64,000 bases of DNA from Pleurotus ostreatus/Saccharomyces cerevisiae fusant (taxonomy: Eukaryota > Opisthokonta): the NCBI GenBank assembly GCA_024196135.1, contig JAMQCK010000006.1:245264-309263 (forward strand). Direction: 5' to 3'. A model generated the notes under the pieces. It was not told the origin of the DNA. It did not search any database and was given only the letters and a program-made list of their open reading frames with translations. A program made the translations under genes and the position numbers. Below, one piece after another: positions 8,264-58,345 of this stretch (its first letter is position 1; the number at the start of each line of letters is the position of its first letter).

Positions 8264-8330
8264 TGTGGCGCGGTTTTTGGATGAGAAGTGGGCGGGCAGA
8301 TGAAGCTTGAATCCAAGAGATGAGAAGGGT

Positions 8331-8356
8331 TTTATACCCTGTCGACACGGTATAAA
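8331..8356. promoter_or_regulatory. 26-bp near-perfect palindrome with opposed TATA boxes, TRL1 promoter
   Basis: Arms TTTATACC (8331-8338) and GGTATAAA (8349-8356) flank a self-complementary core TGTCGACA (8340-8347). Only the symmetric pair 8339/8348 is mismatched (C opposite C). Each strand therefore carries TATAAA. The element lies 68-93 bp upstream of the TRL1 ATG, where a TATA box would sit. The plus-strand copy points into the 3' flank of LTN1. Confidence 0.6.
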
Positions 8357-8566
8357 GATAATGTTGGGAGTCAAAGGTGCATGCGACGTTTGAGAAGGTG
8401 ATGGACGGTTCCAAGCCCGCAGGCTCAATGACTTCGCTTGTGTCACTGTCCGAATCAGGTGACCGTGATCCTTGGGTCTACAGTCGAATAACCTGTTTAA
8501 AAAGCTACATTCGCTATTCCTGTGTACAAAGCCTATGATACAGTACTCGTGTTGTATAGTGTACAT

Positions 8567-11500
8567 TTAGAATATGTTGGACCTGCACAGAGGACAGCTT
8601 GAGGAGTGACTCGTATTGAACCACTGCGAGTCATTCGTGAGCAAGCACGACGCGGGATGAGGAAAGGTTACGGACCTTGTATAGGCACCCAGCGTGGAAG
8701 CGATTCTTGCACGTCTTGCACGGCTTCTTGGGCAGCGATCCGTCCATGACGCTGATGATGCTGAAAACGAACGTCAGCACACGCAGGAACAGCACTTTCA
8801 TGGTACTCACGAATAGCAGATTGCACACTCGACCTGCCCCTCGAAGTGCAATGTGACGTTCTTCTTGAACAGCGCAAGACCGTCTAGGATATGGCCGCTC
8901 TGCCATACTGTCAGCTCTGATTATCCGCCCCACAATCCTCACTCACCTGGAACCACAGCACCTGCTGCACCGCCAGCATCCACGACTTCCATCTTCTGTC
9001 ATCCACTCCCACCGTCTTCACATCCCTCATCTCAATCTTATGCAACGGCCAATCCGCCGGGATCTTCATCTTCATCTCCAGCTGGTGCTCGTCCACCGTA
9101 TACGCGGCCGTGACCTCATGCACCGCGGGCGCGACCTTCACCACGAAGTTCTCGTCTGCGAGGTCCGCGGCGGCGTCCGCGGTGCGCACGTGCGCGAGCT
9201 CTCGCGCGATGATGACGGGCGAGAAGTGCGTAGCGGTGAGCGTGCCGACGGTTGCGGAGAGTGAGCGGTCCTTGCAGTCCTGGATCCAGGAGGCAATCAG
9301 GGAGGGGATGGTGGAGAGGGCGCGGAAATAGATGTGCGCAGCGAAGGCTGGGAGGGCGAAGGTGGTGCCGGACTCGTATACTGTGAAAGTGGTCAGCAGG
9401 GACTCATCAGAAACTAGGCGGTCATCTTACGGGAGACGTAAAATTCGTCGATAGCCCACTGGTCCAGCTTGAAGGCTCTCGGCAGTCCTTGGTCGAGGCG
9501 CAACATATGGATGATGTTTGGCATCAGGTACGTGTCAACAACGCTGAGCGAGCGAAGCTGGTCGATGTACCCCATGCGAACTTTCATAGACTACCCGAAT
9601 GCGTCAGTATGTGGCATCGTTATATATTCTCTCATCACATACCGCGCCCTCGAACAGATCGAACGCAAGCATCCAAGCAAGAAGATGACCGAAGATACTC
9701 TGAAAAATGGTCAGTGCACTTATTTCCTTAACCCGAGAGTATAACGTACCTGCTCATCCTGCTCAGCATCCTCCGGATCAACCAGCCTCGACAACAGCTC
9801 CAGAAGCTCTGCCGGAAGCTCCGCCTTGAACTCATCCTCCGTGTCCACCGCGGACTCGATGACCAGGTGTTCGGTCCGCTTCGCTGCCGCGCCCTGCAGA
9901 ACTTGATACGCCATGCGCTGCACCGACTCCGCTGTGTCGGTGACGAGGTGACACATTTTCGACAGCGTATCGGGCTCGATGAGAGAAGGCGGCAGGTCCT
10001 GCACGACGGTGAGCAGGAGCTCGCGACACGCGGACCGCGGTGCCGAGATCTTGGTCGAGTCTGTCGGGACAAAGGTCAGAACCTGGCAATCCTTCCTACG
10101 TTTGCGAGCTGCGATACTCACCAACCCGCTTGCTCGCCATATCCCTCACGAGCGCCAGAATCCCCTTCTCGCGCTCCTGCCAATCCGCCCTCAACGATTT
10201 CGCCGTCGTCGCCAAGTCGCGCACGGCGATAATCAGCCGCAGCGTCCTCGCCAGCGCCGGCAGCGCCGCATCGTCCTCCAGCGACAGCGTCTCCATATTG
10301 TTCTCCATCACATCGAAGATGAGCCCCCAATGCGCGCCCGGAACGGTCTGCAGCACAGGCGCCAGATGCGTGAAGAGGAGCGGGAGAAGGGCTTCGAGGT
10401 CCTCCGCGGCGCCCTCGTCCTCCTCCTCTTCGTCCTCTTCCTCGTCGTCACCGGCGATCCATGCTTGACAGGCCTTCATGACGTTGACTGCACGCGGGCC
10501 GGGGAGGATGGGTACGCCGCTGTCGGCATTGGGGGCCATTGCGACGAGCTGGCGAACCATCGGGAGGGCACGCGCGGCAGAGGTGCCCTGCAGGTTAGCC
10601 GCGACTTCGTTGCGGTAGCGGTCCAGCCGCGGCGCGTCCGGCGCGGTGCGGGCGATGGCGGCCAGGATCGCCAACGACGTCTCCGGGGCGGTCTTCTGTG
10701 ATGTACGAACAAGCGCGACCCACCCATCGGCCTCCTCCTTCGAGATCTCCTCGAAGACGTGGTCCAGGAGAGCGGTGACGATACGCGCCTGGCGAACTGT
10801 ATCGTCCGTGAGGGCACGGCGAAGGGCGTCAACGACGAAGGCTTTGATGGGTGTGAGGTTGTGCGGCACCCGTCCGTCAACGAGGGCGCGCGCAGACTGC
10901 ACTCGCCAGGCCACATCGTCGTCCATCTCGGTGATGAGAGCGTAGGCGACGATGCCCTCGACCTTCTCCGCGGCAAGGACCAGACCACCGCCATCCAACG
11001 CACGCTCGTCGAACAAGGAGCTCGCACGAGTGGGCACTCCCATGAAGTCGCGCGCCTCGATGGACCATGCGATTAGATGCCGTAGGATCCACGGCTTTTG
11101 ACGAACAAGCGCGCGAAGCGTTGAGGACGGCAGCTCCGGGAGTAAGGCGACGATCCGAGCATATGAACTATAGCCATGAGCGTCGTATAGCGCTGTTATC
11201 GGCCGTGCGTCCTCGTATGTTGACGGAGGAGGTAAAGTATCCACCAACACCGCGAGACTGGGGTCGATCGGCTGGGGTGGCAAAGCATCCAGACGCCTAT
11301 CGAGCGTGTCGGATGGAGGGAACACGGCCATTACGTCCGCGAGCTCGTCGTCGCTTTGCGTGTTCGGCAGATCAGTGAGGACACTGAAGATGTCAGCAGG
11401 CCTGGACAGACGTCAGATATCATAGGCAGTATCTGCAAGCCACTCACCGAACCCAAACCAGCACATTCTCCAACAGCTCCGCCAGCCGTTCCGTAACCGC

Positions 11501-17718: not shown

Positions 17719-19188
17719 TCAGTGATACGCAGGAAGAACACTCAGAAAAGCATACATATCCATCCAATCCGAGGGAAACTCCTGAAAGTGCTTCTCGACG
17801 GAGTGCGAACCCCTCCATTCGGACAAGGTCAGCGCACAGACATCATCCCCCAGCACGTCCTTCGCGACGCGCATGACGAAGTCTGGCACAGGTGTCTTAT
17901 GCGGTACGGACATCTCGACGGAGCGCAAGGAGCGATACCCCTGGTCCAGGAGGCACTTGGCAACGTGCAGTACGCGCCGATAATAGGCCACAGACCCGTC
18001 CTGGCCTGAGTAGGGCCACGGGACGATATGGAGAACAGCGAGCTGCGGGAGGATTTTCGAGGCGTCTTCTGCGAGGAGTGCAAATATATCCGTCGGAGGG
18101 GCCCCTTGGCATCGAAGCGCGAGGACGCGCAGCGCGGGGCATGAGAGAAGGATCTCATGCAGACGATGGTCCCCCATCTCATCGACACCACACTCCGTAC
18201 TGAGCGTCGTGAGCGTCGCGAGCCCGGAGCGCCTCACGTAGGCGAGGAGGTGATTATTGTCGTAAACGTTGATGCGCAGCTTCTCGAGCGCAGGCGCCTC
18301 AATGCTCTGCAGACATGAGCTCGTCAAGCCCCCATGTGACAAGACTCGTAGGTGGGACATCGGACAGACGGGTAATTGCCTACTCGTCCGAAGATTGTCT
18401 CCAGGGTGCTGGTCCGCCAGGACCTCGCAGATTTCAAGGTTGGGCATGTAAGACAAGAGGAATTGACCCCCATCGGCATACGCTGTACCTCGATAGCGGG
18501 TTATTTGCGACCATGGCAGGACATGCGCCAGCGCTCCCGTTACGGACGCGTCGAGCTCAAGATGACGGAGACCTGACGCACTCAGAACGGGCGCCAGGCA
18601 TAGTAGGTCGACGACGAAGGAATCAACACGAAAGCGCTTGAGGAGCGGCATCGGTACCTGGGATACCCCCAATGGCAGTGAGGCCCTAGCAGCCTCTGCC
18701 AACAGCTCGATTCCGCTAAAAGCAACATCGACATGCCTCCAGCGGGAGTGATGATCCCAGATCAGCTCTAGGACCGGTCGCCAACTTACTTTTTCGAAAT
18801 CTCCGATATATATGTCGAGCGGATGGTCGTGAGAGTTGTCCAAGTAGCGTCCGAGCACCGTGCAGGTCAGCGCTATGCGAGATTCTTCCAGATGTCCTTT
18901 TAGCACGGAATTGCTCAACGCGCTCGCCTTGATCCTGCACCAGAGAGATGACTGATCCTGCGCTACGTCGCGCCAGCGCTGGCACACATGAAGGAGTGTC
19001 CATATCGGATCGCTGGCCACCGGATCGAGGTGTCGATTGCCTCGATAGTAGATAAACACCATGCTGAGCAGCTCCGAGGGGAGGGAGCAGATGTGAGGGG
19101 CATGGACCGAGCCATGATGATCGTGTAGCTGGGAGATCTCTGGCAAGCTAATTGGCTGCTGATCTATCGTTCGATCGCGTGTCGACAT
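17719..19188 (-). CDS. F-box/LRR-type protein A
   Basis: Predicted substrate receptor of an SCF (Skp1-Cullin-F-box) ubiquitin ligase. It is a single open frame of 489 residues from an ATG at 19186-19188. The F-box lies near residues 30-80: ICSLPSELLSMVFIYYRG, then LLHVCQRWRDVAQDQSSLWC. The rest has leucine-rich repeat character with recurring PxLxxLxxx and CPALRVLALRCQG segments. It is clearly paralogous to the genes at 28500 and 30736, sharing DPIWTLLHVCQRWRD, DNSHDHPLDI, LLSYMPNLE and CPALRVL. The 5' leader appears to contain a short intron ending at CCTACAG just upstream of the ATG. The target is unknown. Confidence 0.88.
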   Translation of the reverse strand: MSTRDRTIDQQPISLPEISQLHDHHGSVHAPHICSLPSELLSMVFIYYRGNRHLDPVASDPIWTLLHVCQRWRDVAQDQSSLWCRIKASALSNSVLKGHLEESRIALTCTVLGRYLDNSHDHPLDIYIGDFEKVSWRPVLELIWDHHSRWRHVDVAFSGIELLAEAARASLPLGVSQVPMPLLKRFRVDSFVVDLLCLAPVLSASGLRHLELDASVTGALAHVLPWSQITRYRGTAYADGGQFLLSYMPNLEICEVLADQHPGDNLRTSRQLPVCPMSHLRVLSHGGLTSSCLQSIEAPALEKLRINVYDNNHLLAYVRRSGLATLTTLSTECGVDEMGDHRLHEILLSCPALRVLALRCQGAPPTDIFALLAEDASKILPQLAVLHIVPWPYSGQDGSVAYYRRVLHVAKCLLDQGYRSLRSVEMSVPHKTPVPDFVMRVAKDVLGDDVCALTLSEWRGSHSVEKHFQEFPSDWMDMYAFLSVLPAYH

Positions 19189-19888
19189 CCGATCCCTGTA
19201 GGCAGCTCATCGTCAGTCTTGGAGGCCATGCCATTCGACTGTTAACTCACCTCAGAAACTCGGGGTGGATCGGAAGATGGTGGGAGGAGGCGAGTTACGT
19301 TGGTCACTGATGGTTGCCATGTAACTGGGTTTTCCACGCTCATCGCAATTGAAGGAACCGCTTGAACACACGCGGAGTCCGTCATAGACAACGGACAATA
19401 TACTGAAGAATTCTAGCAGAGGTACCCACCTGTGGGCTAGCGCGTTCTACAGCAGCTTGGTCACATACCCTGTCAAGCTGAACCCCGCCTGCCCCTCGAA
19501 CTGTACAGCGGGACCAATTATCGTCGGCAATCGCCGGACAATGTTCGAATCAGCCGACTTTGATTCACTGCAGGCAGAGCCAGACCAGGAGTGTCCGTAG
19601 GCAAGCATAGAGGGTCTGCCACACAAGCTTGCGCATCACACCCCAATTGTATTGGGCTTCACAGCTGGTATCCGCGTCGTAGCAAAATTGAAACAGATGA
19701 GTAACAATGCTGGAACGATATCTACAGCACTAGTATGCACTACGAGAACTGCTCGCCTAGGTACAACAACTATTCGTACATGCGTCGGATGGGTCATACA
19801 ACAGCGAACGTCTATATCCTCATCCTCTTCATCCTCTTTTTTCGCTTCCCGCCATCACCTCCGTTGCAGCTGCCTAGTATATTGACGA
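19189..19888. other. Intergenic region upstream of F-box A and downstream of the aldehyde dehydrogenase
   Basis: Contains the probable spliced 5' leader of F-box A next to its start. Toward 19.9 kb it grades into the 3' flank of the aldehyde dehydrogenase. No coding sequence was recognised. Confidence 0.4.
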
Positions 19889-19978
19889 CCTGCTGTCCGT
19901 CTTCACAGCCGCCTGCTTCTCCGCGCTCGCAGCCGCCTGCTGCCCGCGTTCACAACCGCCTGCTGCCCGCGCTCACAA
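19889..19978. repeat. Minisatellite, 23-nt unit, 3' flank of aldehyde dehydrogenase
   Basis: About four tandem copies of a 23-nt unit resembling CCGCCTGCTGCCCGCG followed by YTCACAA; the last two differ at a single position. It lies just past the dehydrogenase stop codon, so it may be in its 3' UTR. Confidence 0.8.
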
Positions 19979-20036
19979 CCGCGCCCTGTCCTCAGTCAGC
20001 CTCGCCCCATCCGCACCTGCGACTACTCACCGACAC

Positions 20037-23000
20037 TCACTTGCCCACGAGCACCTTCTGGTGCACGCTCTTCGGGCGCGTCACCTGGTCGAAGCCTGGA
20101 AATGGGTGTCAGCGATGCCATTCGGACCGCCAACGGGGACGATAATCGGGACGCCGGTGGGGACGACAATCGGGACGCCAGCGGGGACGACAATCGGGAG
20201 GCCGGCGGGTGACGACAATCGGGACGCCACTCAACGAACACAAACAGAGGAATGAACTCTCACTCACCCAACTTGCTCAAACTAACCCCCCTTCCCGAGT
20301 CCTTCACGCCCACCCAGGCGAGCGCGGGGTCGAGGTAGTCGGCACTAAATGGAATCTTCGTCAGCACTCGGATCGTCACTTTGATTTGCTTTCTGGTCCT
20401 CCGCCTCCGCGCCACAGCCTGGTCCTCTGCCTCTGCGCAACAGAAAGTCTAGTACTCACCGATTCTGGAACACGGTCCCCGCCTCCACCTGCGGCTCGAG
20501 CGCGTCAAACGCCGCCGCGTCGTTCGTCCAGATGGACGCCGTGAGGCCGTAGCTGGAAAGATAGTCAGCGTGTGTTCTATCGACCTGCGCTGCGCCGCCT
20601 TGGAGTTATCGAAAACAGTGGCAGACGCCGAGAGGGCGACCGCCTCGCCGTGACCTCCAACGAGCGCATCGCCGTGTTTGACAACGAGCGCATCGCCGTG
20701 TTTGACAACGAGCGCATCGTCGTTTCCTCCAACGAGCGCATCGCCGTAACCTCCGACAAGCGCTTCCGTGACCGCCAACGAACTTCACTCACCGACTGTC
20801 ATTCATCGCCTTCACCGCCTCCGCGTCATCCGCGACCTTCAAGATGGGCACGACAGGGCCGAAGGTTTCTTCCTTCAAGGATCATCAGTACCGCCTCGCT
20901 GTCGTACCCGCGCCAGCCTCGCTATCGTACCCGCGCCAGCCTCGCTATCGTACCCGCGCCAGCCTCGCCCGAGGCGGGGGCGAAGACCGCGACAGCGACG
21001 AGGGCGAAGACGGCAACAGCAACGGAGGCGAACACCGCACCAGCGAGGGTCCCTGGCAAAAGATACAAGAAGGCACCTACCTTCACCACGTCCATCTCCG
21101 CATTGACATTGACCAGCACTTGCGGGGCGACATACGCGCCCTTGGGGTCCGCCGCAGCCGGGACGAGCTCGGAGGGGATGAGGGGGGTGGCGCCGGCGGA
21201 GACTAAAAGGTGCATTCAGTCGACGTATCTTCGCGCAAGATAGCCAGTTTTTTTTTGTGTCCCGTTGACAGCCAGGTCCCTCCTGCTAAGGTCAGGAACC
21301 GACGCTCCCGGCGTTGAGCGCCAACCCTCAGCTTGGTGGGCCGTGGACCCACACAACGAGATTCAAGAGGATGGAACTTCACTCACCCGCATCCGCAACC
21401 TGCTTCTCGATCCGCTTCTTCGCCGCGTTGCTGATGACGGGGCCGAGGTTGACTGGGAGGGCGTCAGCTTTTGCCCATACTCTCGATCATCCCAATCTCT
21501 ATTGTCCGTCGCATCATCGATCCATCCCTCCCCCAGTCGCAACATCGACCCATCCTCCCCCAGTCGTAACATCGACCCATCCCTGGCTTTTACCCCAGTC
21601 GCAACATCGACATCAAGTCGGAGAGCAAGGCCGTATGGAAAGAAGATGTCATGAATCGGAAATCCCACTCACCCCCCTCCGCCTTCGGATCCCCCAACTT
21701 GTACTCCTTCTTCACAAACTCGGCGAACTGCGCCACAAACGCGTCGTAGAGAGAGGCGTGCACGTAGATGCGCTGAGGGAGGGGTGAGCGTTCGTTGTAG
21801 GGATGGGGTTGGTATTCGATTTGGGGACGAGGTTAATATTTTCCTCTGTTCACGTAGGTGTTCGATGGTCGGATGAAACGAACGACGACGGTCGGATGAA
21901 ACGAACGACAACGGTCGAATAGAACGAACGACAACGGTCGGGTGAAACGAACGTCAAAGGCAGCCACGATGGGAAAATATCCGACATGAAACCCATCCAC
22001 TCACCTCCACCGCACAACAGCTCTGCCCCGAGTTGTAGATCGCCGCGTCGACGAGCTCGGGCACCACGAAGCTCAGATCGGCGTCCTCGCGCACATACGC
22101 CGGATCCTTCCCGCCGAGCTCGAGTCCGACGGACTTGAGGCCAACTTCGCCAGGGTCCTCCCCATACGCCGCCGCCACGCGCGCGACCTCGCGCCCGCCC
22201 GCGACGGAGCCGGTGAAGGAGATGTACCTGTGCGTTCGTCGTTAGCTTTCTCTTCCTGTGCGCTCATTATGAGCTTTCTCTTCCTGTCTCCTTTGAGCCT
22301 GCCTTGTCTCCTTCAAGCCTGCCGCAGAGCGACAGGACAGGGCCTTCGACGAAGACTGATGCGGGCAGGAATGGGAAGTGTGGAGGAAGAAAAACTTCTG
22401 GAACTCAACCACTCACCCGACCCCCGGATGCCTGACCGCCTTCGCGACGAGGCCCGGCGTGAGGTGCTGGACGGTGAATATGTCGGCTGGAGGAGGGGGT
22501 CAGCGTTCGATTCTACCCTGTCTCCCTTACATTTTGATCCTCAGTCGTTTAAGGTCCAGAGCAGAGGTGATGATAGGACTGAGATGCGGGCGAGCGGAAG
22601 AAGGCGTCCAAGGGAAGGGAAAGCAGGCGTCCAAGGAAAGAAAAAGCAAGTAACGATGAAAGATGAAAAGTACACAAAAAGAAAAAGTACACAAAAAGCA
22701 AGTAACGATAAAAAAAACGATAATCCCCACTCACCCAAATCCGGACTAGCCTTCGCCCAGAACTCCGCCAACCGCTCGCCCACAAGCGGCGTCTGCGGCG
22801 ACGGCTTGAGCACGACGGCGTTGCCCGCGAGCAGGGCCGGCACGAGCGCGTTCACGGTGGTGAGGTAGGGGTAGCTGGGGAGGGGTTGGTGAGTTGTGGT
22901 GGATTGTGAGTTAGAGGATGTGGAGGAGGGGTAAGTTTCGTGAAGTGCGCGGTGTTGTGGAGGAGGGAAGGGAGGCGGCCCGGAAGTAATGCAGTGGTGG

Positions 23001-23801
23001 GGGGATGGAAGGAAGGAATGTAGGAGGGATGAGGAAGTCGAACCAGCGAGAGGAGATGGTCGGCGGGAGGTGAGCCAGCAAGAGGGAGGTGAACCAGTAA
23101 GAGGGAGGTGAACCAGCAAGAGGGAGGCAATGCGGAGACTCGCACATTGCGAGCGCTCAGATTCAAATACTCACTTCCACGGCGCGATAATCAACACCAC
23201 GCCCACCGGCACGCGCTTGATCCTCCTCTTCAGTGTCGCCCCGTTCACGCTCTCCTCCGCGATGACGGTGTCCGCGAGCGCTTCTTGCGCGTTCGCGATG
23301 AGCCAGCGCGCGCGGCCGACGAAGCCGCGGAATTCGCCTGGGAGGGGGGGTTGAGGGGGTGAATAGGTGAGTAGGTTGAGGGGGAGAATAGGCGGTGATT
23401 GGGGAAAGACAGGCGGTGATAGGTGAAAGACAGAAACGCACCCGCGTTCTGCTTCAGTGGCCGCCCCATCTGCGCGGTGAGTTCGCGGGCGAGGGGGTTC
23501 TGGGTGATGTCTATGGAGGACAGAGTGAGTATCGGTATGAATCATAGCGCAAGCGCGCAGCAAGCTGTGGTCACGCACCTGCATTGGGATCCGTCAACCC
23601 CGCCTCCTTCTCAAACAGGTCCACGAATCGCGTCACGGCAGCGAGCCTCTGCCCGAGGGGCGCATTTGCCCAGCGCAAGCCAGCATTGGAGGCAGCATCG
23701 AGCGCGGTGGCGACGGCCTGCTGGGAGGGATAGTCGCGGACGCAGACGGACTGCTGGTCGACGGGGCTGATCGTGGTCTGGGTGGTGTCGCTGAAGGACA
23801 T
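20037..23801 (-). CDS. NAD(P)-dependent aldehyde dehydrogenase with repeat-expanded introns
   Basis: Oxidises an aldehyde to its carboxylic acid; the substrate cannot be read from sequence. The ATG at 23799-23801 starts MSFSDTTQTTISPVDQQ. Exons in order give ATALDAASNAGLRWANAPLG, a segment ending VGVVLIIAPWK, AGNAVVLKPSPQTPLVGERL, YISFTGSVAGGREVARVAA, the catalytic glutamate motif LELGGKDPAYV, the active-site cysteine in NSGQSCCAVE, EETFGPVVPILKVADDAEA, and the terminal FDQVTRPKSVHQKVLVGK. TGA is at 20037-20039. All catalytic residues are present and the coding part is about 490-500 residues, normal for the superfamily. The oddity is outside the exons: at least twelve introns, many containing their own tandem repeat, stretch the gene to 3.8 kb. 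Divergent from the DUF202 gene. Confidence 0.9.
20135..20231. repeat. Intronic minisatellite, 24-nt unit
   Basis: Four consecutive copies of a 24-nt unit built on GGGGACGACAATCGGGACG, inside the last aldehyde dehydrogenase intron. Copies diverge at only one to three positions. Confidence 0.85.
20636..20778. repeat. Intronic minisatellite, 24-nt unit
   Basis: Five to six copies of a 24-nt unit built on AACGAGCGCATCGCCGTG, within an aldehyde dehydrogenase intron. Two inner copies (20659-20706) are identical. The unit is unrelated in sequence to the neighbouring arrays. Confidence 0.87.
20895..20963. repeat. Intronic minisatellite, 23-nt unit
   Basis: Three copies of a 23-nt unit built on CTCGCTATCGTACCCGCGCC; copies two and three are identical. 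It is followed directly by a degenerate 24-25 nt GGCGAAGACxGCxACAGC array to about 21045. Confidence 0.85.
21509..21612. repeat. Intronic minisatellite, about 26-nt unit
   Basis: Three to four degenerate copies of CCCCAGTCGCAACATCGACC plus a few bases, in an aldehyde dehydrogenase intron. Confidence 0.75.
21867..21958. repeat. Intronic minisatellite, 23-nt unit
   Basis: Four copies of a 23-nt unit built on GGTCGGATGAAACGAACGAC, ending close to the exon encoding the active-site cysteine. Confidence 0.85.
22600..22715. repeat. Intronic purine-rich direct repeats
   Basis: Repeated AGCAAGTAACGAT and AAAGTACACAAAAAG blocks in an aldehyde dehydrogenase intron; irregular spacing, strongly purine-rich. 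Confidence 0.6.
23069..23125. repeat. Intronic minisatellite, 19-nt unit
   Basis: Three copies of GGTGAACCAGCAAGAGGGA with single-base differences, in an aldehyde dehydrogenase intron. A second degenerate G-rich array lies in the next intron at about 23340-23437. Confidence 0.8.
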
Positions 23802-24261
23802 GGTGGGTGATGTGGTTGGAATATTCACTAGACTGAGTTTGACCTGACGAGATGGAGGTGAAGAGTACAGCCAAGCAGTGGTCGTCCGAGTCAGAGTCTG
23901 CTCGCTATCGCGCACGATGCTGGATCGATGATAGGCAGCCGCGAAGCCTGGCCGCGGGCGGAGCGCTTCTTTGCGGTCCGGGTCTCCGAATGTGGCGTCA
24001 CAAGCCCCATTCGTATTGCGCGCTTCCATTTACGGCCCGGTCCGCGCTGGCCGCCTTGTGGCTGATCGAATTCCGTATTGTGGCTCGCATTCCGTATCGA
24101 AGGTTGTCACCAGCCTTTCTGACGCGACGACCGGCCTTTCTTCCACCGAGGAGCGGACCACTGCGACCGAGCAGCCTTTGCGTGCCCGGCGGGCTTGTCT
24201 GCGACCGACACCAACGCGTAGTCGCCCCTAGCGCCTCTTCAACCACCTACGGCCCCTCCCC
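23802..24261. other. Divergent promoter of aldehyde dehydrogenase and DUF202 gene
   Basis: 460 bp between two divergent start codons. No tandem array comparable to those in the flanking introns and no coding sequence was recognised; it must contain both promoters. Confidence 0.5.
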
Positions 24262-25640
24262 ATGTCCGCCCTCGCCCGCACCCTCTTTCAGCGCAACGGT
24301 CCCGCCCCGCGCGACTTTCCGCCCACCGACACCCCGCCTGGCACCCCCGGCAGCACGCAGCCGGTGACGCCGCGGAGTGAGGACGCAATGACGAGAGAGC
24401 CGTCTCAGGCGGCGTCCACCCCAGCAACACCTGCCCTTGCCTCAACCTCCCGAGACCCAGTAGACCCAAGACACATAGGCTCCCAACCCTTCCCAACAAA
24501 CAACCCCACCACCTCCACCTCCGACCCCCACGCCCTCGCCCGCGGTCTCTACTCCATGCGTCCGGGCCCACCGCGCTTTGTGGATGGCGCGCCTACGCAG
24601 GCATCTGCCGTACGTGCCTTTCCTTTCTCTTTATTTCCTACTCTTGTCTCCGCTTCCCCTCTCCACCTTCACCCTCGCTAACACCCCACTCCCCACCTCT
24701 AGCCCACCTCAACTTCCACCACACCCACCGCCGCCCCTGCGCCCTCACTCCCCTCAAGGCTATCCTCCCGCTTAAAGCGCGCATACACCCCTCTCAAGTC
24801 TACCGCTGATCGCATATCATCCGGCCTTCCCGATGTCACCCTCACCCTCGAAAACTCCGGCTCCGTCGCGCGCGACCACCTCGCCTCCGAGCGCACCTTT
24901 CTCGCATACACCCGGACGAGCCTCGTCATCGCGAGCACGGGCGTCGCGCTCGTGCAGCTGTTCACAATCTCGGCAGAGACGAGGGCAAGCGGTACGTGTT
25001 TATTTACTCGCGTCCAGACGCTTTGCTCGCGTTCAGACGTACGCAAGTGCGCATATATGCACCTCACATGCGCGCATACAAGCACCTCAAACGCGCGCAT
25101 ATAAGCACCACTCTGACGCTCTCCTTTTGCTCAGACTCCTCCTCATCCTCCGTCGCCTTCCAGCCTACCTCCCCCCGTCTCGCCCGCTGGGCACGACCTT
25201 TGGGCGCCGCGACGATCGCGTTCGGCATATTTGTGCTCGCCGTCGGTAAGTTCTTGCTCCCTTTTGTATCTCTCTTTCTCCCTTGCGTATCTCTCTTGCT
25301 CCCTTGTGTATTTCTATCATTTTTGTTTCTCTCCTCCTTCCTCCCCCTTCCCTGCCTCTTCCCTACCCTTCCTTACCCTTCCTTCCCCCCTCTCCTCTTC
25401 CCTACCCATTCTTCCCCGTCTTCCCGCTTCCAATCTCCATCCACTCGCCCTCTCCCCATCTACTCGCCCTCCTCGTACCCAAAACTCACCCCCCGCCCAG
25501 GCCTCGCCCGCTACCTCACCATCCAGTCCGCCCTCGTCCGCGGCACGTTTCCGGCCGCGCGCCTGGTCGTGGTCGCCATCAGCATAGGGCTATGTGTCCT
25601 CGTGGGCGTTGTGTTCGGTGGGGTGGTTGGTGGCGGCTAG
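24262..25640 (+). CDS. DUF202-domain membrane protein
   Basis: Small integral membrane protein; the molecular role of DUF202 proteins is unclear. The ATG at 24262 starts a long Pro/Ser/Thr-rich, probably cytosolic N-terminus (MSALARTLFQRNGPAPRDFP). The DUF202 signature follows in exon 2: RDHLASERTFLAYTRTSLVI. Three hydrophobic segments are seen: SLVIASTGVALVQLF, PLGAATIAFGIFVLAVG, and LVVVAISIGLCVLVGVVFGG. Four exons (about 24262-24609, 24704-24992, 25136-25243, 25501-25640) join in frame with GT-AG introns, and TAG ends the frame at 25640. Introns 2 and 3 contain short tandem repeats, like those of the neighbouring aldehyde dehydrogenase. Confidence 0.85.
25047..25116. repeat. Short tandem repeat in DUF202 intron 2
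   Basis: Three degenerate 22-23 nt copies of GCGCGCATAYAAGCACCTCA. Preceded by two copies of a CGCGTYCAGACG block. Confidence 0.65.
25256..25316. repeat. Short tandem repeat in DUF202 intron 3
   Basis: Three degenerate 20-21 nt copies of TTGCTCCCTTGTGTATCTCT, continuing into a pyrimidine-rich CCCTTCCTTA tract toward 25400. Confidence 0.65.
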
Positions 25641-26032
25641 GACAGCGACAAAGAGGGGCTGGTGGGGAATGAGCGCCAGCGGTTCTCTGCTAGGGTTGAG
25701 ATTTGGTGCGGAAGGGGGGGAGGAGGATGAAGGGGGTGGGAGAAGGGTTTGAGGGAGCGGGCAACAAGGGAAGGTGCGGAAGGAGACGGGGTAGAGGGAA
25801 GGGCAGAGGGCGTGGAAGGAGAAAGGGCGTGGAAGGAGCGGAGAGGGGATGGGCGGCAACATCGCATACACGGCATAGCCAGACGGCCGACACGCACGCA
25901 ATGGCCATGGCCTGCACTAAGCCGGAATTTTTCGCAGCAAACTCCTCCCCGCGCAAAGTCCTCCCCGCCCAGGGCGCAAGGTCCTGGCCGCCGGAGGCGC
26001 AAGCTCCTCCCCACCCAGGGCTCACGCAGCGT

Positions 26033-26130
26033 GCCCGACGAATGCGACCCATTGCCCGACGAATGCGACCTACCGCCCGACGGATGCGACCTATTGCCCG
26101 ACGGACGTACTATTGCCCGACGGACGTACC
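26033..26130. repeat. Intergenic minisatellite, 19-21 nt unit
   Basis: About five copies of GCCCGACGAATGCGACCTAT plus one base; first array of the intergenic mosaic. Confidence 0.8.
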
Positions 26131-26152
26131 ATGCCAGTCTACGGTCTCATCC

Positions 26153-26239
26153 CGGGGGTGCATTCGGAGAACGCCACTTCTCGGGGGTGCATTCGGAGAA
26201 CGCCACATCTCGGGGGTGCATTCGGAGAACGCCACGGCA
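26153..26239. repeat. Intergenic minisatellite, 29-nt unit
   Basis: Three copies of a 29-nt unit containing GGGGGTGCATTCGGAGAACG. The GCATTCGGAG core then recurs, widely spaced, to about 26590. Confidence 0.85.
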
Positions 26240-26327
26240 TATCTACGGGAGGGGCGTGTCGCGCATTCGGAGAGCGTCGCAGCTGCATTCGGAGTAACAT
26301 CTGGGCATCATCTGGAGGACGATTCGG

Positions 26328-26437
26328 AGGAGTGCGCCGCGCATACAGAGGAGTGCGCCGCGCATACAGAGGAGTGCGCCGCGCATACAGAGGAGTGCGC
26401 CGCGCATACAGAGGAGTGCGCCGCGCATACAGAGGAG
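26328..26437. repeat. Intergenic minisatellite, 21-nt unit
   Basis: Five perfect or near-perfect 21-nt copies; GCATACAGAG recurs at 26341, 26362, 26383, 26404 and 26425. This is the most homogeneous array in the window and therefore probably the youngest. Confidence 0.92.
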
Positions 26438-26699
26438 CACGGTTGCCCATTCGGATCTGCATATCCGGAGGACCGTGTTGTCATTCGGAGGAGGGCGTCT
26501 GCTCGTCACTCGGAGGAGAACGTCTGCTCGTCATCTGCAAGAGAGGCGCCTCGTCATCTGCAAGAGAGGCGCGCCGTCCATTCGGAGAACGGCGTGCTTC
26601 TTCTCCCGGTGCGTCCGATGCGAGGGACGCTCGTGCACGGTCCACAGGTCTTCGTCCGTACCTACTCCTTTCAACGTACGTCCTCCTCTCAAGACCTAA

Positions 26700-26848
26700 C
26701 GTCCACCGACAAGTCCTTACATCCACCGACAAGTCCTTACATCCACCGACATAGTCCTTACATCCTCCGATATAGCCCTTACATCCTCCGATATAGTCCT
26801 TACATCCTCCGACATAGTCCTTACATCCTCCGATATAGTCCGTACGCT
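26700..26848. repeat. Intergenic minisatellite, 20-21 nt unit
   Basis: Seven to eight copies of CATCCTCCGATATAGTCCTT plus one base, with early copies reading CCACCGACAAG instead. Confidence 0.88.
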
Positions 26849-26937
26849 ACTCACACACTCCGTACGCTGCTCACACAGGCCCGCGCGCCCCTTACATCAC
26901 GCCTCGGGCGACTCGCCACGATCTACGAATGCTCGGT

Positions 26938-27099
26938 GTCACGATATACCCTACGCGTTCATGATACACCTCATCCGTCCGTGATAAACCTTACGCGTCC
27001 GTGATACACCTTACGCGTTACGATACACCCTACGCGTTCACGATACACCTTACGCGTTCATGATACACCTTACGCGTTCATGATACACCTTATGCGTTA
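26938..27099. repeat. Intergenic minisatellite, 20-nt unit
   Basis: About eight copies of TACGCGTTCATGATACACCT, degenerate at the left end and nearly identical at the right. Confidence 0.88.
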
Positions 27100-27318
27100 A
27101 CGACCTACCTCGCGCTTTTCCCCCGTATACTCAACCCGCATACCTTACGATTCCGTCCATAAAATCCATACACGATAGTGCGGCTTCATATCCCCGTCGC
27201 GTCTTCACGTCTCCATCCGATCGAGCCTTCGTATTCGTCGCTCCTGCCCGGCCCATGACCTGCCTGTCGCTCGCACACTGCAGATCGTCGCAGTCGAAAT
27301 TCTTCGCTCTCCGTAATG

Positions 27319-27400
27319 TGCTCTCTTCTTCCAAACTGAGAAACTCTTCTTCCAAACTGAGAACCTCTCCTTCCAGATTCAGAACCTCTCCTTTCAAAGT
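27319..27400. repeat. Intergenic minisatellite, 21-nt unit
   Basis: Four copies of TCTTCTTCCAAACTGAGAAM plus one base, the last two diverged. Confidence 0.8.
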
Positions 27401-27416
27401 CGTCCAAGGCGCCGTC

Positions 27417-27484
27417 CACAAAAAAGGGCGTCACAAAAAAGGGCCACCCACAAAAAAGGGCCACCCACAAAAAGGGCCACCCGA
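27417..27484. repeat. Intergenic short tandem repeat, 15-17 nt unit
   Basis: Four copies of CACAAAAAAGGGCCACC. Confidence 0.8.
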
Positions 27485-27492
27485 AAAGTCAA

Positions 27493-27570
27493 ACCTGTCC
27501 GGTCAGCCGAAAAATTAAACCTGCCTGGTCAGCCGAAAAATTAAACCTGCCTGGTCAGCCGAAAAATTGA
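27493..27570. repeat. Intergenic minisatellite, 26-nt unit, supplying a Pol III terminator
   Basis: Three copies of a 26-nt unit containing CCTGCCTGGTCAGCCGAAAA followed by ATTAAA. Read on the minus strand each copy has a TTTTT run. The copy nearest the tRNA gene (27562-27566) sits where RNA polymerase III would terminate, about 27 nt past the tRNA 3' end. Confidence 0.8.
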
Positions 27571-27592
27571 ACTTTGTCTGAGAGACTTTCAT

Positions 27593-27727
27593 TGACGAGA
27601 GCGAGATTCGAACTCGCGCCCCGAAAGACTAGATGGAGAGGTGGGCCCTGGCGCCATTGTGTGCGCAATGGTGCCAAGGCCCACCAGGTCCTGATTCTAG
27701 CGCCTTAGACCGCTCGGCCATCTCGCC
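27593..27727 (-). tRNA. tRNA-Leu (anticodon CAG) with a 55-nt intron
   Basis: On the minus strand the 5' acceptor GGCGAGA pairs with TCTCGTC, discriminator A. The D-arm/A-box reads TGGCCGAGCGGTCTAAGGC, as in fungal tRNA-Leu. The anticodon stem CTAGA pairs with TCTAG. The loop carries anticodon CAG at 27691-27693. The T-arm is GCGAG TTCGAAT CTCGC (B box). A short class II variable arm, TCTTTCGGGGC, is present. The intron is inferred at about 27635-27689, one base 3' of the anticodon, the canonical position. It folds into a 20-bp hairpin. The mature tRNA is about 80 nt plus CCA. Confidence 0.93.
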
Positions 27728-28499: not shown

Positions 28500-29975
28500 T
28501 CAGCGATGAAGGTCTATATCTGTCGCAACAGTACTCAGCATCACGAGCAAGATGGAAGAGAAGATGCGATAGCGTACATCCAGTTCCCGGTAATGCTCCT
28601 TTTCGTAGCCCCAATACGACTCGAAGTCGGTGCACACGGTCAGTACACTGCTATCAGCTCCCAGAACATCTCTCGAGATGCTCAGAGCTTGATCGTGCAC
28701 AGGACGCTCCTCATCGGTGTAGATCACAACGGATTGCAAGCGGCAGGTCTCGCGGGTCACAAGACGCTGAACGAACCGCATCACGCGCAGGACGAAGGCT
28801 TCGGACACGTCCGCGGTAGAGTCCACCCACGGCGAGTCCTCCCAAGGCTCGATCAAGAGGACAGCGAGCTGTGGGAGTACGTCCGCGGGCGCGTCCGCAA
28901 GAAGGGCAAATATATCCGTAGGAGAGTCCCCTGCGGCTCGGAGGGACAGAAAGCGCAGGGCGGGGCATAACCGGATAATTTGGAGAAGATGAATATCTCC
29001 CGTTTCTTGTGCACCATACGCCGTGCTGAGCGCCGCCAGGCTTGGTCGCCCAGAGCGCGTCAAAAAATCGAGGATAGCGCGATTGTCCCCGACATAGGAA
29101 CGCAGTTTCTCGAGCACAGGCGCCTCCAAATACGGCAAACACCAGTCCGACGAGTCAAGGCCCAGAGCCCGGAGGCGGAGAAGTTGACACCGTGCCGGGG
29201 AGAGACTGCCACTCGCACGGCTGTCGCCCTGCACGGCGCAGGTCTCGAGGTTGGGCATGTAGGACAGGAGGAACTCGTGACCTTCCTTGGAATATGACGC
29301 TCCCTGATAGCGCGTAATCTGCGCCCACGGCAGAGCGTGGGGCGGCGCGTGCGCGACGTCCGGGCATAGCTTGAGGATGGAAAGGCCCGGCGCCTGCATA
29401 ATTTGAGCCAGACAAGACAGATCCACGGCGCCCTGCGTGATCTTTCGAAAGCTTCGCAGGAGCGGTAGCGGTACTGCCTGCGACGATTCCACCGACAGCG
29501 AAGCCTTGGCAACTTTGACTAGTTGCTCAACCCCGCTATCACGGACGGTGACATCCCTCCAGCGTGCCTGATGCCTGCAGAGAAGCTCTACGACCGGACG
29601 CCACCAGGAATCTTGGCAAATCCAAAGGGAGTCGATGTCGAGCGGATGGTCGTGGGAGTTGATCAAGTAGCGTTCCAGCACCTTGCAGATCAGTGCTACG
29701 TGACGATCAGAAAGGGGGTGGACAGTAATCATGAGCCATTTTTGCATAACGGTGTTGATCCTGCACCAGAGGGATGACTGCGCCTGTGCCACGTCGCGCC
29801 ACCGCTGGCACACGTGGAGGAGCTTCCATACCGGATCGCTGGCCAGTGGATCGAGGTGTCGATCGCCTCGGAAGTGGATGAACACAAGTTGAAGCAGCTC
29901 CGTGGGTAAGGAGGAGATGTGAGAGGTGATGTGGGCCGCTTCGTGATCGTAGTATGGCTGTGTGGTAGCCTGCAT
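28500..29975 (-). CDS. F-box/LRR-type protein B
   Basis: Predicted SCF ubiquitin-ligase receptor, 491 residues in one open frame. The start was chosen at the ATG at 29973-29975 (MQATTQPYYDHEAAHITSHI). It aligns with the start of its head-to-head paralogue at 30736; the frame is open further upstream but has no ATG. The F-box reads ISSLPTELLQLVFIHFRGD, then KLLHVCQRWRDVAQAQSSLW. Leucine-rich repeats follow, including LLSYMPNLETC and LCPALRFLSLRAAG. The C-terminus ends FSSILLVMLSTVATDIDLHR. It differs from the paralogue throughout but keeps the same architecture, so both copies look functional. Target unknown. Confidence 0.88.
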   Translation of the reverse strand: MQATTQPYYDHEAAHITSHISSLPTELLQLVFIHFRGDRHLDPLASDPVWKLLHVCQRWRDVAQAQSSLWCRINTVMQKWLMITVHPLSDRHVALICKVLERYLINSHDHPLDIDSLWICQDSWWRPVVELLCRHQARWRDVTVRDSGVEQLVKVAKASLSVESSQAVPLPLLRSFRKITQGAVDLSCLAQIMQAPGLSILKLCPDVAHAPPHALPWAQITRYQGASYSKEGHEFLLSYMPNLETCAVQGDSRASGSLSPARCQLLRLRALGLDSSDWCLPYLEAPVLEKLRSYVGDNRAILDFLTRSGRPSLAALSTAYGAQETGDIHLLQIIRLCPALRFLSLRAAGDSPTDIFALLADAPADVLPQLAVLLIEPWEDSPWVDSTADVSEAFVLRVMRFVQRLVTRETCRLQSVVIYTDEERPVHDQALSISRDVLGADSSVLTVCTDFESYWGYEKEHYRELDVRYRIFSSILLVMLSTVATDIDLHR

Positions 29976-30735
29976 GCCGGTCGCGGCTTCGCTTGGATTG
30001 CGTTGAAACCCACACAAACCGCGACGCCAAAGTGCCTACAGGGAGAGCACGCCTCTATAATTGCCACGGCGTCTTTGAAGAGGAGGAAAGAACGAGATTC
30101 CGGCCTACGTTCGTGCCGAGATGTATTCAAAGATGGCGGAAGGAGACACGTTCATTTGGTCACACTGTGACGCTGAAACCCTGCCGATATTTACGTTCTC
30201 GCGCCGGTTCTTCGCGTCTACCATATCATTCCTACTTCAAATGCGGAACCACAGCCAAAGTCGGACAAGGATTTTGTGAGGTACGAGTACGTGGAAGATA
30301 TGTTAGGCTTTCCGTGTAAGCTTTATGTTCAACGTGTACGACTACTGTAAGTGGTTGTTGTACTTTGCTTGCTATGTCAGTGCACCTATAAGCTATTAGA
30401 CGCGATGGGGCTTCGGCTGCGCCTGGGAGGTCTCTTTAACATTAAAGAAAGCAACTCCGCGCAAAATGACTCTACACGGATTTGCAGTTGCTCTTCGGCA
30501 ATTGCCGACTGATATTGATGGACACGTGCATGACATGCGGCGTGTCCATAAACAACTTGCCTCCTCCCGTTATCTTGATATTTTATCTCGGCACGAGCGT
30601 AGCCCGGATTCCTGCTCCCTCCAAAAGCGGAAGCAGCATATATTGAAGCCATCGCTCTTCCCGTAGGTACTTTGGCGTCCCAATTTGGGCTTGGAGTTCA
30701 GGCTAACCCGAATGATATAGCAACAGCCGGACAGC
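29976..30735. other. Shared head-to-head promoter of F-box genes B and C, with inverted-repeat leaders
   Basis: Both ends carry the same 5' leader in opposite orientation. TCTCGGCACGAACGTAG (minus strand, about 30108-30124) matches TCTCGGCACGAGCGTAG (plus, about 30586-30602), and each is followed by CCGGAnTC. CTGTAGGCACTTTGGCGTC (minus, about 30023-30041) matches CCGTAGGTACTTTGGCGTC (plus, about 30660-30678). The homology therefore extends about 150 bp upstream of each start codon, as expected from an inverted duplication of gene plus leader. Confidence 0.7.
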
Positions 30736-32301
30736 ATGCAGGAGGCGTCACAACTACACTACGATTATGGACCGGCCCATCCCGTTTCTTATGTCTCCTC
30801 TTTACCCACGGAGCTGCTCAATCTCGTGTTCACGCACTATCGAGGCGATCGATCCATCCATCCATCGGCCAGCGATCCAATATGGACGCTCCTCCACGTA
30901 TGCCAGCGCTGGCGCGACATAGCGCAGGAGCAATCATCTCTCTGGTGCAGGATCAATACATTTTCGAGGTCATCGACGAGGCCTGATTTCCATTCTCTCT
31001 CGGACCGGCGCGTATCTCTGGTCTGCAATGTGCTGGAGCGCTACTTGGTCAACTCCCACGACCATCCGCTCGACATTGACTGCTTCTGGCTATGCAGAGA
31101 TGACTCGTGGCGTCCGGTTCAAGAGCTTCTTTGGAGGCACCACGCTCGCTGGAGGGATATTACTGTCCGTGGTAGCGGGGCTGAACAGCTGGCCGAAGTT
31201 GCCAGGGCTTCACTGTCAGTGGAGTCGACGCAGGTACCATTGCCGCGCCTGCGGAGCTTTCGGACTCTCGCGCCGGCCCCCGTGGACCTGTCTTGTCTGG
31301 CTCACATTCTGCAGGCGCCTGGCCTTTCTATCCTCAGTCTGCGCTCGATCGTGTTGGACGCACCGCCTGATGCCCTGCCGTGGGCGCAGATCACGCATTA
31401 TCGAGGAAGGTCACACACCCATGCGGAACACCACTTTCTCCTGTCCTACATGTTCAACCTCGAAAGCTGCGACGTGCTTGGCCCCAGCCTCGCGTTCGGC
31501 AGTTCAAATCCGGCACGACGTCGATATCCACGCCTCCGGGCACTGGGCCATGATAGATCGGACTTGTGCTTGCGGTACATGGAGGCGCCGATGCTCGAGA
31601 AGTTACGCTCCCGGGCACAGGACAACCGTCTTGTCCTCAATTTCCTGACGCACTCTGGGTTTCCAAACCTTACGACGCTCACTACGGCGTTCGGTGTTGA
31701 TGGAATGGGAGACGATCACCTTCATCAAATTATTCGATTATGCCCCGCCCTTCGCGTTCTGTCTCTAAGAGCCGAAGGCGACCATCTTCTGGATATATTC
31801 TTTCTCCTTGCAGACCCGCCCCCGGACGTACTTCCCGAGCTCGCTGTCCTTCTGATCGAGCCTTGGAAAAAATGTGCTGTGGACGCGTCCGAAGGTTTTG
31901 CCCGGCGCGCGATACGAGTCGTGCACCGCCTGCTGATGCGCGAGAGACGCCGCCTGCATTCGGTCGAGTTCTACAGCGAGGCGGGGTGTGTGATGCACAC
32001 TCAGATTTTAAGCATCTCGAGAGAAGTGCTGGGAGACGATAGCGGTGTACTGAGCGTGTGCACCGACTTCAACTGGCGTTCGCGAATTGACAACGAGCAT
32101 TTTCGAGAACTGGATGTACGCTTTTGTAATTTTTTCCTTTGCTTCCTCGATGCTGATATCTTTTCGATAGATTTAGCCCTTCAATGCCACCGACGTGGCG
32201 CTAGACGAGAAACGTCAAACATAGTTGGCGCAGAGCAGTTGAATCAATTTAGGATCTTGTACAGAGATTCGCTGGACGTAGGTAGCCGGACAAAAGCATA
32301 A
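30736..32301 (+). CDS. F-box/LRR-type protein C
   Basis: Paralogue of F-box proteins A and B; 521 residues from the ATG at 30736 (MQEASQLHYDYGPAHPVSYV). The F-box is VSSLPTELLNLVFTHYRGD followed by LLHVCQRWRDIAQEQSSLWC. Leucine-rich segments follow, including FLLSYMFNLESCDVLGPS and LCPALRVLSLRAEGD. Compared with protein B (ending IDLHR), the C-terminus runs about 40 residues further in the same frame after FLDADIFSIDLALQ. This may be a real extension, loss of the ancestral stop codon, or an unspliced last intron. It is convergent with KAR5, with only about 80 bp between the 3' ends. Confidence 0.86.
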   Translation: MQEASQLHYDYGPAHPVSYVSSLPTELLNLVFTHYRGDRSIHPSASDPIWTLLHVCQRWRDIAQEQSSLWCRINTFSRSSTRPDFHSLSDRRVSLVCNVLERYLVNSHDHPLDIDCFWLCRDDSWRPVQELLWRHHARWRDITVRGSGAEQLAEVARASLSVESTQVPLPRLRSFRTLAPAPVDLSCLAHILQAPGLSILSLRSIVLDAPPDALPWAQITHYRGRSHTHAEHHFLLSYMFNLESCDVLGPSLAFGSSNPARRRYPRLRALGHDRSDLCLRYMEAPMLEKLRSRAQDNRLVLNFLTHSGFPNLTTLTTAFGVDGMGDDHLHQIIRLCPALRVLSLRAEGDHLLDIFFLLADPPPDVLPELAVLLIEPWKKCAVDASEGFARRAIRVVHRLLMRERRRLHSVEFYSEAGCVMHTQILSISREVLGDDSGVLSVCTDFNWRSRIDNEHFRELDVRFCNFFLCFLDADIFSIDLALQCHRRGARRETSNIVGAEQLNQFRILYRDSLDVGSRTKA

Positions 32302-58060: not shown

Positions 58061-58345
58061 ATGGCGCCCGTATTCTTCGCCTCGTAGGTCCTCACTGGTC
58101 GACAGCGAGTTAGACCCTCCCTCCGACGAAGCGTTGAATTGGAGATATGTCGCTGGGGATTTATAATGAGACCTATGGCTTTGATAGCGCTCTCCGCGAT
58201 CCGCGCGCTGATGTAGGACGAAGCAGAAGAGCGTCGTGACTCGTGAACGAAGCCAGCGACGGCAAAAATGAGATCCGGAGAATGCCGAACGCATTCCCAC
58301 GCTAATAGAGCTACCTGGTTTCTACTCTTACTTCCAACATCGACC

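What the first reader, a model, noticed from the sequence alone, without database searches (positions are those of the whole stretch)
19889..27570. A 7.7-kb minisatellite hot zone with many unrelated arrays of similar unit size
Roughly eighteen tandem arrays lie one after another across a 3' flank, aldehyde dehydrogenase introns, two introns of the next gene and an intergenic stretch. Their sequences are unrelated, yet nearly all units fall between 19 and 29 nt, many being 21, 23 or 24. Outside this zone introns are short and repeat-free apart from a small array at 38.3 kb. Independent birth of many same-sized repeats in one place suggests a local mechanism that duplicates about 20-25 nt segments (for example polymerase slippage at stalled forks, or repair of staggered nicks) rather than spread of one element. 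The exons between the arrays are intact.
Basis: seen in the sequence. Interest (0 to 1): 0.82.

Follow-up and report, generated by a model that had tools for sequence, protein, structure and literature searches.

The report
Cluster of independent short tandem repeats
In a 7.7-kb stretch of a mushroom genome (very close to the split-gill Schizophyllum commune) about thirty mostly unrelated short tandem repeats of nearly one unit length fill introns and gene flanks while the exons stay clean; repeats of the same kind turn up elsewhere in this genome, so this looks like an unusually hot spot of a widespread mutational habit.

Summary
TRF (score 50) gives 31 non-overlapping arrays in 19889-27572 (4.0 per kb) against 3 in the other 56.3 kb. 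A lag test with one score limit for every lag finds 85 self-matches in the zone, 0 in each of five dinucleotide shuffles, 6 in the rest of the window. Units run from 17 to 29 nt and are unrelated, with local exceptions. 12 of 15 introns of an intact aldehyde dehydrogenase gene and a DUF202 gene carry arrays; arrays cover 0 of 2373 exon bases. The ALDH is 97% identical to a Schizophyllum commune protein.

That the mechanism is local is only partly supported. 37 non-coding arrays outside the zone show no significant difference in unit size (median 21 against 22; KS p = 0.11), and in 18 sampled stretches 13 of 22 lie within 500 bp of another (2.3 expected). At other loci haplotypes differ by about one unit. 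A tRNA link is not supported, on a small sample. Best reading: tandem duplications of 15-29 nt are born from local sequence, perhaps by fill-in of staggered breaks, then grow and decay. The enzyme step is inferred, and why this zone is so dense stays open.

The parts
19889..27572 (.). dense zone of 31 short tandem arrays
   Evidence: TRF; lag test
20037..23801 (-). aldehyde dehydrogenase gene, 13 exons, 12 introns, 494 aa, intact
   Evidence: gene model; Pfam Aldedh; 97% identical S. commune protein
24262..25640 (+). DUF202 protein gene, 4 exons, 3 introns, 295 aa, intact
   Evidence: Pfam DUF202
19889..19982 (+). array, 23-24 nt (dimer 47), 3' flank of ALDH
20128..20229 (+). array, 24 nt (dimer 48), ALDH intron 12
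20393..20443 (+). array, 26 nt x2.0, ALDH intron 11
20637..20781 (+). array, 24 nt x6.1, ALDH intron 10
20893..20968 (+). array, 23 nt x3.3, 98% matches, ALDH intron 9
20978..21046 (+). array, 24 nt x2.9, ALDH intron 9
21508..21584 (+). array, 27 nt x2.8, ALDH intron 7
21867..21957 (+). array, 23 nt x4.0, ALDH intron 6
22285..22323 (+). array, 20 nt x2.0, ALDH intron 5
22598..22648 (+). array, 23 nt x2.2, ALDH intron 4
22666..22698 (+). array, 17 nt x1.9, ALDH intron 4
23065..23127 (+). array, 19 nt x3.3, ALDH intron 3
23390..23433 (+). array, 21 nt x2.1, ALDH intron 2
25003..25039 (+). array, 19 nt x1.9, DUF202 gene intron 2
25049..25109 (+). array, 23 nt x2.7, DUF202 gene intron 2
25252..25315 (+). 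array, 21 nt x3.0, DUF202 gene intron 3
25336..25431 (+). pyrimidine-rich 10-nt / 21-nt array, DUF202 gene intron 3
25797..25837 (+). array, 17 nt x2.4, downstream of DUF202 gene
25951..26021 (+). array, 23 nt x3.1
26032..26129 (+). array, 21 nt x4.4, overlapped by a derived 19-nt array (26091-26129)
26148..26235 (+). array, 29 nt x3.0
26327..26437 (+). array, 21 nt x5.3, 100% matches
26480..26578 (+). overlapping 25-nt and 23-nt arrays
26657..26692 (+). array, 18 nt x2.0
26695..26845 (+). array, 21 nt x7.3
26839..26877 (+). array, 20 nt x2.0
26939..27099 (+). array, 20 nt x8.1 with a 79-nt higher-order period
27323..27398 (+). array, 21 nt x3.6
27416..27487 (+). array, 15-17 nt x4
27481..27572 (+). 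array, 26 nt x3.5
27593..27727 (-). tRNA gene with a long insert, border of the zone
   Evidence: link to arrays tested

Best explanation
The zone is a hot spot of a genome-wide mutational habit. Short segments of local non-coding DNA, about 15-29 nt (median 21-22), are duplicated in tandem one event at a time. The route I think most likely is a double-strand break with overhangs of about 20 nt, made by two nearby nicks on opposite strands, filled in on both sides and joined. Once two copies exist, gain and loss of units by slippage or unequal exchange makes arrays of 3-8 copies and higher-order periods; point mutation then erases them, and new duplications arise inside or beside old ones. Exons, and here the stretch between the two divergent genes, stay clean, so introns swell. 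Shown here: the arrays, their size window, mostly unrelated units, a spread of copy identity, clean exons, similar sizes elsewhere, and length differences of about one unit between haplotypes at other loci. Inferred: the break-and-fill-in step, removal from exons by selection, and why this 7.7 kb is so much denser than its surroundings.
For: Size window with one score limit and zero in shuffles. Unrelated units and no close copies found elsewhere in the assembly. Copy identity from 72% (68% for the pyrimidine row) to 100%, so births are spread over time. A 19-nt array inside a 21-nt one and periods 47, 48, 79. Arrays cover 0 of 2373 exon bases and 0 of 460 bases between the two start codons, against 1056 of 2771 intron and 1135 of 1940 downstream bases (score 50). 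In 6 of 12 array-bearing introns, length minus array is 45-95 nt, near the 68 and 93 nt of two array-free introns. Unit sizes of 37 non-coding arrays outside the zone do not differ significantly and arrays cluster there too. Three haplotype pairs: of 10 internal indels of 16 nt or more, two change an array by one unit (20 nt at L020:1613; 23 nt in a 24-nt array at L024:5086), one of 20 nt beside a 20-nt array is 65% similar to the neighbouring unit, and one of 27 nt beside a 28-nt array is only 48% similar. A homologous non-coding segment on another contig has a 21-nt insertion in a 21-nt array. Exact-match runs in five recent two-copy duplications exceed the unit by -1 to 1 nt (22666: -1; 26527: 0; 26091: 1; L012:4192: 0; L026:791: 1), but only 22666 and L026:791 stand outside longer or overlapping arrays. 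Small tandem duplications by fill-in at breaks with 3' overhangs are shown in mouse ES cells (PMC8355091, passages seen).
Against: With mismatches allowed the extra match is 6 at 26527 and 2 at 22666. Over 31 two-copy arrays 35% extend 5 nt or more and 42% extend 1 nt or less; simulated blunt duplication gives 6-10% and 65-78%, a 5-nt flanking repeat 60-100% and 0-13%. Neither pure model fits, and some arrays may once have had more copies. The other 6 array-bearing introns still measure 138-237 nt without their arrays and one array-free intron is 184 nt, so arrays do not account for all of the intron growth. At L020:1613 the one-unit allele is a hybrid of both copies of the other, so it can be a loss and not a birth. 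The zone has no second allele in the assembly, so turnover here was not seen. The cause of the local density is unknown.
Confidence: 0.5

Rival explanations
1. Classical minisatellite birth by replication slippage between short direct repeats that flank a segment of about 20 nt, followed by expansion (model recalled, no source read).
For: 11 of 32 two-copy arrays have 5 or more extra matching bases, above the simulated blunt model; the young arrays at 20893 and 26327 end in partial units (3.3 and 5.3 copies).
Against: Exact-match runs of five recent duplications exceed the unit by at most 1 nt. Slippage gives no obvious reason for limits near 15 and 29 nt.
Confidence: 0.28
2. Birth rate is uniform over non-coding DNA and the zone only reflects weak constraint in long introns and a 1.9-kb intergenic gap.
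For: Arrays avoid exons and the stretch between the start codons; arrays of similar size occur elsewhere.
Against: In 18 sampled stretches non-coding arrays cluster beyond uniform placement (13 of 22 with a neighbour within 500 bp; mean 2.3, maximum 10 in 5000 simulations; the simulation did not model where non-coding DNA lies). The rest of the window has 3 arrays in 56.3 kb.
Confidence: 0.13
3. A stalled-fork site, for example the tRNA gene that borders the zone, drives local duplication.
For: The zone ends about 20 bp from a tRNA gene; of 15 other stretches scanned, the one with a tRNA gene was the one with most arrays. Without that stretch the comparison rate falls to 0.153 arrays per kb, below the 0.275 per kb at tRNA genes.
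Against: 10 of 13 stretches centred on other tRNA genes have no array; 3 of 13 against 20 of 90 2-kb bins (16 of 85 without L018) have any, and 5 of the 7 arrays lie in one stretch. Most arrays of the tRNA-bearing stretch are coding repeats. Only about 1 kb on each side was read.
Confidence: 0.05
4. One mobile or amplifying element spread through the zone.
For: CATTCGGAG recurs in and between neighbouring arrays at 26.16-26.59 kb.
Against: Units otherwise unrelated; no close copies found elsewhere in the assembly.
Confidence: 0.02
5. Assembly artefact.
For: The assembly has 1277 contigs and contig pairs that look like split haplotypes.
Against: Arrays are at most about 160 bp and in most the copies differ; flanking exons are intact and match a protein of another record; at another locus two haplotype contigs carry matching arrays. 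No reads were available.
Confidence: 0.02

Closest known systems
Minisatellites (variable-number tandem repeats)
   Same: Unit 10-100 nt, tandem, imperfect copies, length differences of about one unit between haplotypes (seen at other loci), higher-order periods
   Different: About 31 mostly unrelated arrays of a narrow unit-size range packed in 7.7 kb, many with only 2-4 copies, in most introns of one gene
Small tandem duplications made at double-strand breaks with 3' overhangs (CST and Pol alpha-primase fill-in, PMC8355091; passages seen)
   Same: Short direct tandem duplications; little or no microhomology in exact cases
   Different: That work is in mouse ES cells with induced breaks; nothing was tested in a fungus here and the enzymes were not looked for
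Short insertions clustered at germline regulatory sites in humans (PMC8559717; passages seen)
   Same: Locally raised rate of short insertions, often duplications
   Different: Those studied are 5-20 bp at transcription-factor sites; here arrays fill introns and 3' flanks and are missing between the two start codons

Membership tests
minisatellite | head-to-tail copies of a unit of 10-100 nt, more than chance | tested here: met
minisatellite | copy number varies between individuals or haplotypes | tested here: inconclusive
   seen at other loci of the genome; the zone has no second allele in the assembly
break-induced small tandem duplication | no required microhomology at the junction | tested here: inconclusive
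   exact runs of five recent duplications -1 to 1 nt beyond the unit, two of them free-standing; diverged arrays mixed
break-induced small tandem duplication | depends on end joining and fill-in synthesis | not testable with these tools
   needs mutants
dispersed or mobile repeat | related copies at other places in the genome | tested here: not met
   itself and one 69% match to the pyrimidine-rich intron 3 of the DUF202 gene; the search skips simple repeats and very common words
fork barrier at tRNA genes | arrays enriched near tRNA genes | tested here: inconclusive
   3 of 13 tRNA stretches against 20 of 90 bins; 0.275 against 0.250 per kb, or 0.153 without L018

The most novel reading that the evidence does not exclude
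This fungus makes tandem duplications with a built-in ruler of about 21 nt (two helical turns), in bursts that stay near earlier bursts, so that whole gene neighbourhoods grow unrelated minisatellites of one size and their introns lengthen several-fold while exons are kept clean. The ruler would be the spacing of paired nicks on opposite strands.
Probability: 0.25. Interest if true: 0.65.

Novelty: new member of a known kind. Interest (0 to 1): 0.42.

Why it matters
Minisatellite births are hard to study because most arrays are old. A fungus with two strongly differing haplotypes and clusters of young, size-restricted duplications would let births be read directly by comparing strains. It also suggests a simple way for introns to lengthen without harm to the protein.

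Tried and rejected
tRNA or fork-barrier cause: looked promising, not supported (small sample). One spreading element: rejected. Second dense stretch (L018, contig C1100): of its 19 arrays 14, at 6778-9281, have periods that are multiples of three inside a 3-kb open frame reading as a repetitive, glutamine-rich protein, so it is no parallel; the other 5 (four at 3140-4120, one at 9854) counted as non-coding. Microhomology test: mixed. Segment lengths are inflated where neighbouring arrays have equal period (e.g. L002:1437, L012:3882), and one search used 31 of the 32 values (window:38708, value -11, dropped because its match was shorter than a unit). The comparison of L002 with L039 was only locally informative (57% identity overall). 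Papers: searches for intronic minisatellites or tandem repeats in fungi or in this fungus listed 17 of 17, 20 of 84, 20 of 31, 8 of 8 and 8 of 8 papers; by titles and starts of abstracts none describes such a zone. Only the held open-access library was searched. In PMC7403608 the passages and section 4 seen report 11 indels among 300 de novo mutations, with no sizes in what I saw.
Full report
What was checked. The window is the last 64 kb of a 309-kb contig in a 40.05-Mb assembly of 1277 contigs. The ALDH protein encoded in the zone is 97% identical over its whole length to a Schizophyllum commune protein, next best 77% to S. fasciatum, so the organism is S. commune or very close; the assembly itself is unnamed.

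Arrays. TRF at score 50 finds 31 non-overlapping arrays in 19889-27572 and 3 in the rest of the window (list with more rows). Because TRF favours some unit sizes, I also counted ungapped self-matches at every lag from 3 to 120 with one score limit: 85 in the zone, 0 in each of five dinucleotide-shuffled copies, 6 in the other 56.3 kb. Of the 85, 41 are at lags up to 29: one at 10, 40 at 15-29, of which 28 at 19-25. The other 44 are at longer lags, many near multiples of the short ones (by eye). Copy identity runs from 72% to 100%, 68% for one pyrimidine-rich row, so the arrays differ in age.

Gene context. The ALDH gene has 13 exons and 12 introns that begin with GT and end with AG, and its product has the same length as the annotated protein P0001. 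The neighbour is a DUF202 gene with 3 introns. 10 of 12 ALDH introns and 2 of 3 DUF202-gene introns carry arrays. At score 50 arrays cover 0 of 2373 exon bases, 0 of 460 bases between the two start codons, 1056 of 2771 intron bases and 1135 of 1940 bases downstream of the DUF202 gene; at score 30 they touch 32 exon bases. Introns without arrays are 68, 93 and 184 nt, those with arrays 104-300 nt. Without their arrays 6 of the 12 measure 45-95 nt and 6 measure 138-237 nt, so arrays explain only part of the growth.

Are units related? Of 992 pair-by-strand comparisons one exceeds the maximum of the shuffled units, and it is a duplicate row of the same array. CATTCGGAG occurs 7 times from 26161 to 26587, so some neighbours there share an ancestor. 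The zone as a DNA query matches itself and one 69% stretch on contig C657.

Is the zone unique? I read 18 stretches of 10 kb (16 of them are the first 10 kb of a contig, three lie on the window's own contig, so they are not a random sample), 6 stretches from three haplotype pairs and 13 short stretches around tRNA genes, about 266 kb. For the unit-size test I used one haplotype per pair (about 236 kb) plus the window outside the zone. Calling an array coding when its period is a multiple of three inside an open frame of 900 nt or more, 37 of 64 arrays outside the zone are non-coding. Their unit sizes have median 21, the zone's 22; the difference is not significant (KS p = 0.11). In the 18 stretches 13 of 22 non-coding arrays have a neighbour within 500 bp; uniform placement gives 2.3 on average and at most 10 in 5000 simulations. 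So similar sizes and clustering are found beyond the zone. Clusters under 1 kb elsewhere are as dense (four arrays in about 0.4 kb in L012, five in about 0.8 kb in L002), but no sampled stretch keeps such a density of non-coding arrays over several kb (4.0 per kb here, 0.12 per kb in the 18 stretches).

Turnover. Three contig pairs align at 89-94% identity and are best read as two haplotypes of one dikaryon. Leaving out the last 370 or so bases of one pair, where homology ends, there are 10 indels of 16 nt or more, two of which (17 and 17 nt) look like one alignment slip. Two change an array by one unit (20 nt; 23 nt in a 24-nt array), one of 20 nt lies beside a 20-nt array and is 65% similar to its neighbour, and one of 27 nt lies beside a 28-nt array with 48% similarity. 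A homologous non-coding segment (L002 against L039) has a 21-nt insertion in a 21-nt array.

Mechanism. Exact-match runs of five recent duplications exceed the unit by -1 to 1 nt, which needs no earlier flanking repeat; only two of them, 22666 and L026:791, stand outside longer or overlapping arrays, and with mismatches allowed 26527 extends 6 nt. Diverged two-copy arrays are mixed: 35% of 31 extend 5 nt or more, between the 6-10% simulated for blunt duplication and the 60-100% for a 5-nt flanking repeat. Fill-in at staggered breaks with end joining is a shown source of small tandem duplications in mouse cells (PMC8355091, passages seen). I hold it the most likely source here, with slippage as the main rival. 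A link to tRNA genes was tested on 13 stretches: 3 of 13 carry arrays against 20 of 90 2-kb bins of the 18 stretches; the rates are 0.275 against 0.250 per kb, or 0.153 without L018, the stretch that itself holds a tRNA gene. That does not support the link but does not close it.

Verdict. A real and striking cluster, best read as an extreme case of a process that acts across this genome. Why this neighbourhood is so much denser than the next stays open.

Noticed in passing
window 27593-27727 (-): tRNA gene with a long insert that by eye holds an inverted repeat; ARAGORN missed it, Rfam found it. Ten of the 63 scored tRNA matches in the genome have a similar length of 120-137 nt.
   Followed up: partly
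G000 contig pairs C720/C721, C386/C362, C516/C475: The assembly holds both haplotypes of some regions as separate contigs, 89-94% identical: a ready set for reading indel births.
   Followed up: partly
L018 6609-9611 (-): Open frame of 1000 aa reading as a glutamine-rich protein built of many short in-frame repeats.
   Followed up: no
window 17719-19206, 28500-30035, 30721-32301 and, more weakly, 58247-59590: Large open frames that share an N-terminal motif like LPTELL..VF..YRGDR; they resemble F-box-type fungal families from memory only.
   Followed up: no
L002 630-2320 and L039, L040: Diverged homologous non-coding segments on three contigs, 70-87% identical in blocks, each with tandem arrays.
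   Followed up: partly
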